Source: Baekduia soli
Lineage (GTDB): Bacteria; Actinomycetota; Thermoleophilia; Solirubrobacterales; Solirubrobacteraceae
Reading direction: 5' to 3'
DNA: 64,000 nt
NCBI RefSeq assembly: GCF_007970665.1
Contig: NZ_CP042430.1
Coordinates: forward strand, 186,001-250,000
Below, piece by piece: positions 4,864-54,648 of the stretch. A program made the position numbers and the translations under genes. The first letter of the stretch is position 1, and the number at the start of each line of letters is the position of its first letter. The notes beneath the pieces are model-generated. The model did no database searches, was not told the origin of the DNA, and saw only the letters and a list, made by a program, of their open reading frames with translations.

Positions 4864-6463
<1,600 letters not shown>

Positions 6464-6492: not shown

Positions 6493-6537
6493 CGGATGTC
6501 GCGTTTGTGGGGTATGTCCTCACCTCCGCGACATCCG
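6493..6537. repeat. 45-bp palindrome E1, left bracket of the DUF559 gene
   Basis: Perfect 11-bp arms CGGATGTCGCG / CGCGACATCCG, a 3x3 internal loop, then a 6-bp inner stem GTGGGG/CCTCAC (one G-T wobble) and a 5-nt loop. It begins 30 bp after gmd and ends 6 bp from the DUF559 stop codon. The same 45-bp design recurs at 7527-7571 with 33/45 identity. Base pairs 7/39 and 11/35 differ in compensatory fashion between the copies, which indicates that the fold is maintained. REP-like in structure, but its partner gene is not a RAYT transposase. Confidence 0.85.
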
Positions 6538-6543
6538 TGCGGC

Positions 6544-7461
6544 TCAGGCCCGGGCGGCGCGCAGCGCGGCCGTCACGCGGAGCGCGACCGTCGCCGGCGT
6601 GCGCACGAGCTGCCGGTCGCTGACCCGCAGCAGGGTCCAGCCACGGGCGGCGAGGACCTGTGAGCGGGCGCGATCGGCCTCGAACGCTCGCCGGGAGCGG
6701 TGCCAGCGGTAGCCGTCGAGCTCGACGGCCACCCGGCGGTCCGGCCAGCGGAAGTCGACCTCGCCCGCACCGTCGCGCCCGTTGACCACCGGCCGCGGGA
6801 TGTCGCGGTCGAGGCACAGCTGCAGGAAGAGCGCCTCGAGGTCGCTGCGGGTGTGCGCGAGGCCGTGGTCGGCCGCGTCGGCCAGGACGGCCTCGAGCGT
6901 GGCGACGCCCGGACGGCCGCGGAGCACGTCGAGGATCCGGCGCACGTCGCGCAGGTCGAAGAGCTCGGCCTCGTCGGCCCGCTCGACGGCGCGCCGCACC
7001 TCGTGCGGGCGCACGACGGCCGCGAGGTCGACGAGGGTCCGGGCCACCGAGGTCACCGGGATCGCCTCCGAGGCGGTGACCTCGGTGGGCGCCAACGTCC
7101 GGGTGCGATGGACGACGACGCCGGCCCTCGCCTGCCGGCCCGCGTGCGACGGGCACGTGACGTCGACACGGCTCGCCCCGCCCGGACGCAGTCCCCACAG
7201 CGCCGCGGCGCTGCGATGGCTGAGCACCACGCGGGGCCCCATCACGAGCACGATCTGCATCCACCGGGTGTGGACCGACGACGGCCGGTGGCCGAGCGCG
7301 TAGACGCCGCGGTCGACGGCCACGAGCCGCCCGGTGCGCCGTCGGTGCACGATGGCCTCGGCGCCCAGGCCGAGCGCGAGGAGCTGGCGGCGGGCGACGA
7401 GGCCGTGCTGGCGCTCGGCAAGCAGCCGGATGTGGCGGTCGATGGCGCGAAGCTGGGGCAT
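6544..7461 (-). CDS. AbiEi-type winged-helix + DUF559 (Vsr-like nuclease) protein
   Basis: 305 residues. Residues 1-55 (HGLVARRQLLALGLGAEAI, then RLVAVDRGVYALG) match the AbiEi_4-type winged-helix N-domain; 60-170 is the AbiEi-like middle. Residues 205-300 are DUF559, a PD-(D/E)XK/Vsr-like nuclease fold: GEVDFRW with D236, VAVELDG with E247, H254, and WTLLRVSDRQL as the last core strand. Known: this family is common in actinobacteria and of unknown function. Seen: no AbiEii-type toxin gene lies beside it, so a classic AbiE system is not supported. It is flanked on both sides by related 45-bp palindromes and lies between two convergent sugar genes. Inference: a palindrome-associated, possibly mobile single-gene unit. 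Confidence 0.85.
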   Translation of the reverse strand: MPQLRAIDRHIRLLAERQHGLVARRQLLALGLGAEAIVHRRRTGRLVAVDRGVYALGHRPSSVHTRWMQIVLVMGPRVVLSHRSAAALWGLRPGGASRVDVTCPSHAGRQARAGVVVHRTRTLAPTEVTASEAIPVTSVARTLVDLAAVVRPHEVRRAVERADEAELFDLRDVRRILDVLRGRPGVATLEAVLADAADHGLAHTRSDLEALFLQLCLDRDIPRPVVNGRDGAGEVDFRWPDRRVAVELDGYRWHRSRRAFEADRARSQVLAARGWTLLRVSDRQLVRTPATVALRVTAALRAARA

Positions 7462-7526
7462 CGCCCCACATAGGCGCCGCCGGCTCGGAGTTCACCCCCC
7501 GGGGGCACGACGTCCCTCGGGCCCGA

Positions 7527-7571
7527 CGGATGGCGCAGAGGTGGTGCATGACCCCACGTCTGCGCCATCCG
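7527..7571. repeat. 45-bp palindrome E2, right bracket of the DUF559 gene
   Basis: Perfect 13-bp arms CGGATGGCGCAGA / TCTGCGCCATCCG, one mismatch, then an inner GTGG/CCAC stem around the centre TGCATGACC. It lies 65 bp upstream of the DUF559 ATG. Shared with E1 at the same spacing: CGGATG, CGC, GTGG, the central ATG, CAC and GCG-CATCCG. Both copies are exactly 45 bp. Confidence 0.85.
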
Positions 7572-7597: not shown

Positions 7598-7613
7598 GGT
7601 CCGCCTGCGGACC
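7598..7613. terminator. Hairpin at the end of the Gmd-like gene
   Basis: Perfect inverted repeat GGTCCGC-CT-GCGGACC touching the minus-strand stop codon (7613-7615). No U-tract. Likely 3' end structure of the leftward gene. Confidence 0.4.
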
Positions 7614-8578
7614 TACGCCTGCGCCCGCAGCTCGGCCAGGTCCGCGGACACCATCTCGGCGATCATCGCCTCGAACGTGATCGCGGGCTCCCAGCCCAGA
7701 GCGGACCGGGCGTGCGAGGGGTCGCCCACCGGCGGCGTGGCCTCCGGGGCCCGCACGAAGGCCGGGTCGACGCGCACGCGGCCCTCGGGGTCCACCCCGG
7801 CGGCCGCGAACGCCGCGTCGACCAGCTCGCCGACCGTGCGCCCCCGTCCCGAGGCCAGCACGTAGTCGCCGGCCTGCGGTGCCTGCAGCGCCAGCCAGGC
7901 GCCGCGCATGACGTCGGCCGCGTGCGACCAGTCGCGCACGGCGCGCAGGTCGCCCAACACCAGCTCCTCCTGGAGGCCGAGCGCGATCGCGGCCGCCCCG
8001 CGGGTCACCTTGCGCGGCAGGAAGTGCGCCGGTCGGCGCGGGGACTCGTGGTTGAAGAGGATCCCGGAGACCACGTGGGTGCCGAAGTGCGCGCGCAGCG
8101 CCCCCACCAGGCCGTGGGCGGCGAGCTTGGCCACCCCGTACGGCGACCGCGGGCGCATCGGCGAGCGCTCGTGCTGGGGCGACTCGCCGCTGTCGCCGAA
8201 GATCTCGCTCGACGTCGCCACGAAGACCCGCATCTCGGGATCCAGGCGCCGTGCGGCGCCCAGCAGCTCGGCGGTCGCACCCGCGATCGCGGCCAGGATG
8301 AGGCCCGGGTCCTCCCACGAGGTGGGCACGAACGTGGGCGCGGCGAGGTGGTAGAGCTCGTGCGGGCGAACCGCGCCGAGCGCATCGCGCAGCGTCCCCG
8401 GCTCCAGCAGATCGCCGTGCAGGAGCGTGAGCCGGTCGCGGACATGACCCAGATGGGGGAGGTCCTGATCGACCGGTTGCCGGACGATGCCCGCGACGTC
8501 GTAGCCTTCTGCGAGCAACAGCTCGGCCAGATACGAGCCGTCCTGGCCGCTGATCCCGGTGATGAGCGCCCGTCGCAC
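7613..8578 (-). CDS. GDP-mannose 4,6-dehydratase-family NAD-dependent sugar dehydratase/epimerase
   Basis: 321 residues, colinear with the Gmd at 5492 but clearly diverged. [12 protein letters not shown] (8-19), TSSEIFG (122-128), YGVAK (Tyr147, Lys151) and FNHESPRR are all kept, including the Glu needed for 4,6-dehydration. It could therefore be a second dehydratase for another nucleotide sugar, or a reductase/epimerase acting on the Gmd product (Rmd-like). GTG at 8578 is chosen because TAGTCT lies 8 nt upstream. Convergent with gmd across the DUF559 cassette. Confidence 0.85.
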   Translation of the reverse strand: MRRALITGISGQDGSYLAELLLAEGYDVAGIVRQPVDQDLPHLGHVRDRLTLLHGDLLEPGTLRDALGAVRPHELYHLAAPTFVPTSWEDPGLILAAIAGATAELLGAARRLDPEMRVFVATSSEIFGDSGESPQHERSPMRPRSPYGVAKLAAHGLVGALRAHFGTHVVSGILFNHESPRRPAHFLPRKVTRGAAAIALGLQEELVLGDLRAVRDWSHAADVMRGAWLALQAPQAGDYVLASGRGRTVGELVDAAFAAAGVDPEGRVRVDPAFVRAPEATPPVGDPSHARSALGWEPAITFEAMIAEMVSADLAELRAQA

Positions 8579-53781: not shown

Positions 53782-54648
53782 ATGCTGCTCGGGGCGGTGC
53801 TCATCCTCGGCATCCTCAGCGTCCCGCTGACCGGCGGCAACCTGGTCCGCGCGGCCGACGTCCGCTTCCGCCGCCGCTGGGCGATCATCGCCGCGCTGCT
53901 CGGCCAGATCGTCGTCATCGAGATCCTCCCGGGCGGCAGCCCGGCGCTGCACCAGGGCGCGCACCTGGCGACCTACGCGCTGGCCGCCGTGTTCATCGTG
54001 AGCAACGTGCGGATCACCGGCGTCGGGCTCATGGGGCTCGGCGGCGGCCTGAACCTGCTGGCCATCGCGGCCAACCACGGCATCATGCCCGCGCGCGCCG
54101 GCGCGCTGCGCACGGCCGGCCTGGCGCCGCCTCCGGGGCACTTCGCCAACTCGGCGGTGGTCTCCGACGCGCACCTGCGGTGGCTGGGCGACGTCTTCGC
54201 CGTCCCGTCCTGGGTGCCGCTGGCCAATGTCTACAGCGTGGGCGACGTCCTGCTGCTCATCGGGGCCGTCGGCGGCCTGCACGCCGTATGCGGCAGCCGG
54301 CCGGCGACGTGGGTCCGCGCCCACCTGCGCCCGCGCGCGCTGCACGTGGAGGCCGTCGAGGTCGTCGCGGTGGGCTCGGGCCCGGCGCTGCTGCGGGTCC
54401 GCGGACGGGGCGCGGCCACCCCCGCGGCGCTCGTCCTCGTCGTCGAGGACGACCGCCGCGGGCCGTGGACGGTGGCGGCGCTCGCCTCGCCCGCGCCGCC
54501 CGGGACCCAGCTGTGGGCCGGCTTCGCGGTCCCCGGCGGCCCGGAGGCGCTCGACGGGTGCCGCCTGAGCCTGCGCAGCGGGCGCCGCACGATCCCGCTG
54601 CCCCCGGCACGCCCGCGCCGCCTGGGCCCCGTCGCGGCCGCCGCCTGA
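53782..54648 (+). CDS. DUF5317-like membrane protein
   Basis: 288 residues. Five or so hydrophobic segments in the first 180 residues (MLLGAVLILGILSVPLTGGN; QIVVIEILPGG; VGLMGLGGGLNLLAIAANHG; VYSVGDVLLLIGAVGGLHAV), a layout matching DUF5317 proteins; an unrelated soluble beta-rich tail of about 100 residues follows. Starts 2 bp after the (repaired) stop of the GGDEF-EAL gene, so likely co-transcribed. Function unknown. Confidence 0.7.
   Translation: MLLGAVLILGILSVPLTGGNLVRAADVRFRRRWAIIAALLGQIVVIEILPGGSPALHQGAHLATYALAAVFIVSNVRITGVGLMGLGGGLNLLAIAANHGIMPARAGALRTAGLAPPPGHFANSAVVSDAHLRWLGDVFAVPSWVPLANVYSVGDVLLLIGAVGGLHAVCGSRPATWVRAHLRPRALHVEAVEVVAVGSGPALLRVRGRGAATPAALVLVVEDDRRGPWTVAALASPAPPGTQLWAGFAVPGGPEALDGCRLSLRSGRRTIPLPPARPRRLGPVAAAA

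What the first reader, a model, noticed from the sequence alone, without database searches (positions are those of the whole stretch)
6493..7571. Two related 45-bp palindromes bracket an AbiEi/DUF559 nuclease-like gene
E1 (6493-6537) and E2 (7527-7571) are both exactly 45 bp, 33/45 identical without gaps, and fold into the same two-part hairpin. Pairs 7/39 (T-A versus G-C) and 11/35 (G-C versus A-T) changed together, so structure is conserved rather than just sequence. They sit 6 bp after the stop and 65 bp before the start of one DUF559 gene, and the whole unit lies between two convergent Gmd-family genes. REP palindromes are known to travel with RAYT transposases; here a Vsr-like PD-(D/E)XK protein occupies that place. 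This could be a new class of palindrome-associated, possibly transposable or gene-drive-like unit, in which the winged helix binds the palindrome and DUF559 nicks it.
Basis: partly seen in the sequence, partly recalled or inferred. Interest (0 to 1): 0.88.

Follow-up and report, generated by a model that had tools for sequence, protein, structure and literature searches.

The report
Nuclease gene bracketed by dispersing palindromes
A small bacterial gene for a DNA-cutting protein is bracketed by long mirror-image DNA repeats that are also scattered as lone copies through the genome, and relatives of the gene in many other bacteria each carry their own private repeat, which points to an undescribed kind of selfish or mobile unit built on a different enzyme from the one known to pair with such repeats.

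Summary
E1 and E2 are real (33/45 identical), and a third copy, E3 (7439-7483), lies over the DUF559 start codon. The palindrome is a dispersed family: 36 places in the 5.2 Mb genome, essentially all intergenic, mostly at gene 3' ends. In four congeners the gmd-gmd junction is empty.

Those two genes carry their own, different palindromes. Across 110 DUF559/AbiEi loci of the order (Solirubrobacterales), 47% have a long palindrome over the start codon versus 1% of control windows. In 19/107 loci the upstream and downstream flanks are homologous (0.3% of mismatched pairs). These palindromes recur in all 29 genomes searched; 40 fetched dispersed copies had no DUF559 gene nearby. One Tsukamurella locus, in another class, shows the same anatomy.

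The protein is an AbiEi-like DNA-binding module fused to an intact EDxHD/Vsr nuclease (structural matches: AbiEi antitoxin, homing endonuclease I-Bth0305I). No RAYT is present. Best reading: a REP/RAYT-like or homing-like unit with an unrelated enzyme. The association is shown; binding, cutting and mobilisation are inferred.

The parts
6544..7461 (-). DUF559/AbiEi nuclease gene, 305 aa (MPQLRAIDRHIRLLAERQHG...)
   Evidence: ORF; Pfam MTES_1575, AbiEi_4 and DUF559 above cut-off; PADLOC AbiEi 1e-32; AlphaFold pLDDT 94
6898..7437 (-). AbiEi-like part with N-terminal winged helix (residues 9-188), presumed palindrome binder
   Evidence: PADLOC AbiEi match to residues 9-188; Foldseek best hit AbiEi antitoxin 6y8q, E 2.1e-6, TMt 0.73
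6562..6843 (-). EDxHD/Vsr-like nuclease part (residues 207-300), with E209, D236, E247, D249, H254 invariant in 62 sequences
   Evidence: Invariant columns; Foldseek I-Bth0305I catalytic domain TMt 0.83 and Vsr; profile hit 3r3p
6493..6537 (.). E1: 45-bp palindrome 6 bp beyond the DUF559 stop
   Evidence: (58.8 bits)
7439..7483 (.). E3: degenerate third palindrome; its centre holds the DUF559 start codon (7459-7461) and its arm encodes MPQLRAID
   Evidence: R1 33.8 bits, E 4e-7; same position as the start-codon palindromes of other DUF559 genes
7527..7571 (.). E2: 45-bp palindrome 65 bp upstream of the DUF559 start, forming an 88-bp-spaced doublet with E3
   Evidence: (68.3 bits)
5492..6463 (+). 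Left neighbour: GDP-mannose 4,6-dehydratase family gene; its stop bounds the insert
   Evidence: Pfam; orthologue next to gmd2 with a gap of about 10-66 bp in G001, G002, G003, G006
7613..8578 (-). Right neighbour: second GDP-mannose dehydratase family gene, convergent
   Evidence: Pfam

Best explanation
A two-part mobile or selfish unit. The gene encodes a fusion of an AbiEi-type DNA-binding module and a homing-endonuclease-type (EDxHD/Vsr-like) nuclease. The protein, probably as a dimer, recognises its own ~37-55 bp palindrome, two inverted half-sites about 5 bp apart. One copy lies over the gene's start codon (probably also an operator that limits expression), another at or beyond the stop. 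The nuclease nicks or cuts the palindrome, and repair or replication of the break spreads lone palindromes to tolerated sites (mainly at gene 3' ends, often between convergent genes) and occasionally carries the whole palindrome-gene-palindrome unit to a new site, as between the two gmd genes here. Shown: bracketing, start-codon position, gene- and genome-specific palindromes, dispersed solitary copies, one occupied site with empty orthologues, a predicted nuclease fold with intact active-site residues. Inferred: dimer binding, cutting, and that the nuclease is what spreads the palindrome.
For: Start-codon palindromes: 47% of 110 DUF559 loci at score >=12, against 0.95% of 2206 control windows and 0.5% of windows inside the genes; downstream 19%. 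Upstream palindrome centres cluster near -58 bp from the conserved QHG codon. Own up/down flanks are homologous in 19/107 loci against 0.28% of mismatched pairs. All three DUF559 genes of this genome have their own palindromes. All 29 genomes searched match palindromes taken from their own DUF559 loci at several places, with high copy number in many. 40 fetched dispersed copies from six genomes have no DUF559 gene within about 1 kb. Empty gmd junctions in four congeners. No Y1_Tnp in the genome. Structure: AbiEi antitoxin, then I-Bth0305I and Vsr, with active-site residues invariant. AbiEi binds two 23-bp inverted repeats 3 bp apart in its own promoter (PMC7319586), and I-Bth0305I dimerises on a ~60-bp target (PMC3943268), both close to this palindrome's geometry. 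Palindrome similarity tracks the wHTH segment best (permutation p 0.01). Same anatomy in Tsukamurella.
Against: No biochemical or mobility data exist. An empty-site test for five solitary copies was uninformative because synteny is not conserved in the congeners. No target-site duplication was identified. About half of the DUF559 loci show no detectable palindrome. The palindrome-protein correlation is weak (Spearman 0.09). A nuclease that cut all 36 chromosomal sites would harm its host, so cutting must be restrained or limited to a special DNA state. No relatives were found in phages or viral contigs, and only one full-length one among plasmid records.
Confidence: 0.58

Rival explanations
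1. Autoregulated DNA-binding nuclease: the start-codon palindrome is only its operator, and the dispersed palindromes are a regulon, decoys or structural binding sites rather than mobile DNA.
For: AbiEi proteins autorepress through inverted repeats in their promoters (PMC7319586); palindromes straddle start codons.
Against: An operator does not explain the related palindrome at the stop, near-exclusive intergenic copies with 19/34 between convergent genes and few in divergent promoters, or copy families private to one genome.
Confidence: 0.18
2. The palindromes are spread by another agent (a RAYT or other transposase in trans, or replication slippage and gene conversion), and the DUF559 gene is only a passenger that uses palindromes as landing sites.
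For: Some REP classes (CGTC) have no dedicated transposase (PMC3733652); many solitary copies here share extra flanking motifs, so the moved unit may be longer than the palindrome.
Against: No Y1_Tnp in the genome; each DUF559 gene has its own palindrome, placed at fixed distance over the start codon; all 29 genomes tested match palindromes taken from their own DUF559 loci.
Confidence: 0.12
3. Bidirectional transcription terminators or mRNA 3'-end hairpins; the DUF559 link is incidental.
For: Most copies lie a few to about 150 bp beyond stop codons and often between convergent genes; hairpins are very stable.
Against: No U-tract; in G038 the T and A stretches lie inside the stem in the wrong order for a terminator; the strongest DUF559 enrichment is at start codons; sequence differs from gene to gene.
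Confidence: 0.06
4. Defence system: an AbiEi/Vsr-like nuclease acting on invading DNA, with the genomic palindromes as self-recognition or storage sites.
For: PADLOC AbiEi models match.
Against: No nucleotidyltransferase toxin partner (AbiEii) next to the gene: both neighbours are gmd genes; palindromes differ per gene and are dispersed; no phage link.
Confidence: 0.06

Closest known systems
REP/REPIN repeats with RAYT (TnpA-REP) tyrosine transposases
   Same: Short palindromes, intergenic, lineage-private, flanking a dedicated gene and dispersed as solitary copies or doublets (PMC3116915, PMC3733652).
   Different: Enzyme is a wHTH + EDxHD/Vsr-like nuclease, not an HUH/Y1 transposase; palindromes are 37-55 bp and often centred on the start codon; no GTAG tag was seen in the palindromes listed (not scored formally).
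EDxHD homing endonucleases (I-Bth0305I) and free-standing homing endonuclease genes
   Same: Nuclease fold (TMt 0.83), intact EDxHD residues, long dimeric target site (PMC3943268), stand-alone gene present or absent at a site.
   Different: Not in an intron, intein or phage; flanked by two full palindromes rather than split halves of a target; many palindromes exist without the gene.
AbiEi antitoxins of AbiE type IV toxin-antitoxin systems
   Same: N-terminal ~190 residues share the AbiEi fold (6y8q) and probably binding to inverted repeats near its own start.
   Different: No AbiEii toxin gene; fused to a nuclease; palindromes on both sides of the gene and dispersed.
Vsr very-short-patch repair endonuclease / DUF559 proteins
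   Same: Catalytic domain.
   Different: No linked cytosine methyltransferase among the adjacent genes; extra DNA-binding module; associated palindromes.

Membership tests
REP/RAYT (REPtron) | RAYT gene with Y1_Tnp/HUH catalytic domain | tested here: not met
   PF01797: no match in the genome, while the search rings in 5 control genomes; the bracketed gene is AbiEi + DUF559
REP/RAYT (REPtron) | Dedicated gene flanked by the palindrome | tested here: met
   E1, E2, E3 around the gene; pairs in 19/107 loci
REP/RAYT (REPtron) | Same palindrome dispersed in intergenic DNA, private to the lineage | tested here: met
   36 places here, none in 6 congeners at E<=1e-6; 29 other genomes
REP/RAYT (REPtron) | GTAG or CGTC tag next to the palindrome | not tested
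   Not scored formally; no shared tag was seen in the palindromes listed
EDxHD homing endonuclease | EDxHD catalytic residues and fold | tested here: met
   E209, D236, E247, D249, H254 invariant in 62 sequences, D263 nearly so; fold match 3r3p
EDxHD homing endonuclease | Gene present/absent at a site in relatives | tested here: met
   Empty gmd junctions in G001, G002, G003, G006
EDxHD homing endonuclease | Cleaves the empty allele and is copied into it | not testable with these tools
   Needs biochemistry and crosses; no palindrome is seen in the empty gmd sites
AbiE type IV toxin-antitoxin | AbiEi-fold N-terminal module | tested here: met
AbiE type IV toxin-antitoxin | Adjacent AbiEii nucleotidyltransferase toxin | tested here: not met
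   Both neighbours are gmd-family genes
Intrinsic transcription terminator | GC hairpin followed by U-tract | tested here: not met
   No T-run after E1, E2 or the other copies, by inspection

The most novel reading that the evidence does not exclude
AbiEi-EDxHD (DUF559) genes are a large, previously unrecognised class of bacterial selfish elements: a homing-type nuclease whose own palindromic binding site spreads through the genome as a REP-like repeat, with fast co-evolution of protein and palindrome so that each gene has a private repeat, occurring in at least two actinobacterial classes.
Probability: 0.55. Interest if true: 0.93.

Novelty: categorically new. Interest (0 to 1): 0.86.

Why it matters
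REP palindromes have been explained by one enzyme class, the HUH RAYT transposases, and several palindrome families have no known mover. Here an unrelated enzyme, an AbiEi-type DNA binder fused to a homing-endonuclease-type nuclease, shows the same gene-repeat partnership in dozens of genomes. If the nuclease drives the spread, this is an independent origin of the arrangement, gives a function to a large DUF559/AbiEi family now annotated only by domain, and supplies many natural protein-palindrome pairs for studying recognition and homing. It is directly testable with purified protein and cultured species such as Conexibacter arvalis.

Tried and rejected
(1) Accidental link: considered first, because almost all of the 36 copies are far from DUF559 genes and the other two DUF559 genes lack this palindrome; rejected when those genes proved to have their own palindromes and the order-wide statistics came in.
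(2) RNA structure: no excess covariation within the genome and no credible Rfam match.
(3) RAYT: absent.
(4) Terminators: rejected for lack of U-tract and for the start-codon position.
(5) Exact-pattern scans of genome contigs and viral contigs with this genome's palindrome found nothing, as expected for a private repeat.
(6) Empty-site test for five solitary copies: synteny not kept, no verdict.
(7) G004's 966-bp and G005's ~2-kb gaps at the gmd site: G004 holds an unrelated ORF resembling a methyltransferase by eye; G005's gmd is interrupted by an intein-like stretch.
(8) A wide alignment was too diverse for the search for related loci; a narrower one worked but its 80 best loci are almost all from the same order.
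(9) No relatives in viral contigs, nor in phages or plasmids with the window protein.

Full report
WHAT IS THERE. A covariance model built from 17 copies also finds a third, degenerate copy, E3, at 7439-7483. Its centre is the start codon of the DUF559 gene and its arm encodes MPQLRAID. So the gene starts inside one palindrome, has another 65 bp upstream, and ends 6 bp from a third.

A DISPERSED FAMILY. The model finds 36 places in the 5.2-Mb chromosome at E<=1e-3. In the contexts I read, nearly all lie between genes: 19 of 34 between convergent genes, 13 between genes in the same direction (own gene prediction). Many copies share further flanking motifs, and doublets occur about 75-90 bp apart, as E3/E2 do. 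No copy reached E<=1e-6 in six congeners or, with one exception in family f3, in the rest of the 231 other genomes of the order. A looser model of the 37-nt core finds relatives only in families f1 and f3 of the same order, 14 of 399 genomes, for example at least 17 copies of a variant in G038. Within this genome the arms do not covary beyond chance; between genomes they do (with the caveat that a paired model collected them). That fits a DNA dyad rather than an RNA hairpin.

THE LINK TO DUF559. This genome has three DUF559 genes and only one carries this palindrome, which first suggested coincidence. But the other two carry their own. The gene at 258937 lies between GGTCACCTTGACGTGCATATGGCACGTCAAGGTGACC and a close relative of it; the gene at 649909 has a 47-bp palindrome at its stop and a partial match before its start. 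I then took 110 DUF559/AbiEi loci from the order. In the 105 bp over the start codon, 47% have a palindrome scoring at least 12, against 0.95% of 2206 control windows from the same loci and 0.5% of windows inside the genes; downstream the figure is 19%. Upstream palindrome centres cluster near -58 bp from the conserved QHG codon. In 19 of 107 loci the upstream and downstream flanks are homologous at a score reached by 0.28% of mismatched pairs.

COGNATE DISPERSAL. Thirty-eight DUF559 loci from 29 genomes gave 41 palindromes, which were searched together against those genomes. All 29 genomes had matches (3 to 25 hits each, both strands and the gene copies counted), and the listed matches are almost all to the genome's own palindromes. 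Forty dispersed copies fetched from six genomes had no DUF559 gene in the ~1 kb around them; 27 of 40 were called intergenic with genes on both sides, 3 lay at contig edges and 10 fell in a predicted ORF, some of which may be spurious. Palindrome similarity follows protein similarity only weakly, best for the winged-helix segment (p 0.01), so palindromes turn over fast.

MOBILITY. The gmd-gmd junction that holds the unit here is a gap of about 10-66 bp without gene or palindrome in G001, G002, G003 and G006. The same test for five solitary palindromes was uninformative because gene order is not kept.

THE PROTEIN. AlphaFold gives a confident model (pLDDT 94). Its best structural matches are the AbiEi antitoxin (6y8q, TMt 0.73), then the catalytic domain of homing endonuclease I-Bth0305I (TMt 0.83) and Vsr. 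The EDxHD residues E209, D236, E247, D249 and H254 are invariant in 62 sequences. AbiEi binds two 23-bp inverted repeats 3 bp apart in its own promoter (PMC7319586) and I-Bth0305I dimerises on a ~60-bp target (PMC3943268). Both resemble the palindrome's geometry.

TAXONOMY AND REACH. Outside it, the only full-length plasmid-collection hit, in Tsukamurella (class Actinomycetes), is also bracketed by two related 41-bp palindromes. Close copies stand alone elsewhere in the same strain, one of them 9 and 8 bp from two convergent stop codons. That is one case tested and one positive.

MECHANISM AND NOVELTY. The anatomy is that of REP/RAYT, but the enzyme is unrelated and no Y1 transposase is present. 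I think the protein binds and nicks or cuts its palindrome and so spreads it, and at times the whole unit. This step is inferred. Rivals are an autoregulator with decoy sites, a different mover, terminators and defence. I rate it categorically new because no known palindrome-repeat system uses this enzyme type, while its working may prove analogous to REP/RAYT. Literature searches in the open-access library found no report joining DUF559 or AbiEi nucleases to dispersed palindromes; subscription papers were not searched.

Noticed in passing
G000:C1 solitary copies, e.g. 141189, 528749, 1640079, 4950022: Many solitary palindromes share an upstream motif GGTCGTCCGCCGGCGCC (also inverted downstream) and a downstream motif GTGAGCGCCGACGCGCC plus a second palindrome, so the dispersed unit may be a 110-200 bp composite.
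   Followed up: partly
L274 (congener G005, gmd gene): The gmd orthologue is interrupted by an intein-like stretch (NHE-CLRANAPLMVRRNG ... [12 protein letters not shown]).
   Followed up: no
window 54421-54462: Another long near-perfect hairpin, CCCGCGGCGCTCGTCCTCGTCGTCGAGGACGACCGCCGCGGG, unrelated in sequence to E1/E2.
   Followed up: no
order-wide: DUF559/AbiEi genes are very numerous in Solirubrobacterales, with 10 or more matches in many genomes (only about 10 candidates were scored per genome) and none in others, such as most of genus g13.
   Followed up: partly
palindromes of many DUF559 loci: The palindrome centre holds CAT or ATG in 31 of 54 cases against 18% of arm windows, partly because the start codon sits there, but solitary copies in this genome keep it too.
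   Followed up: partly
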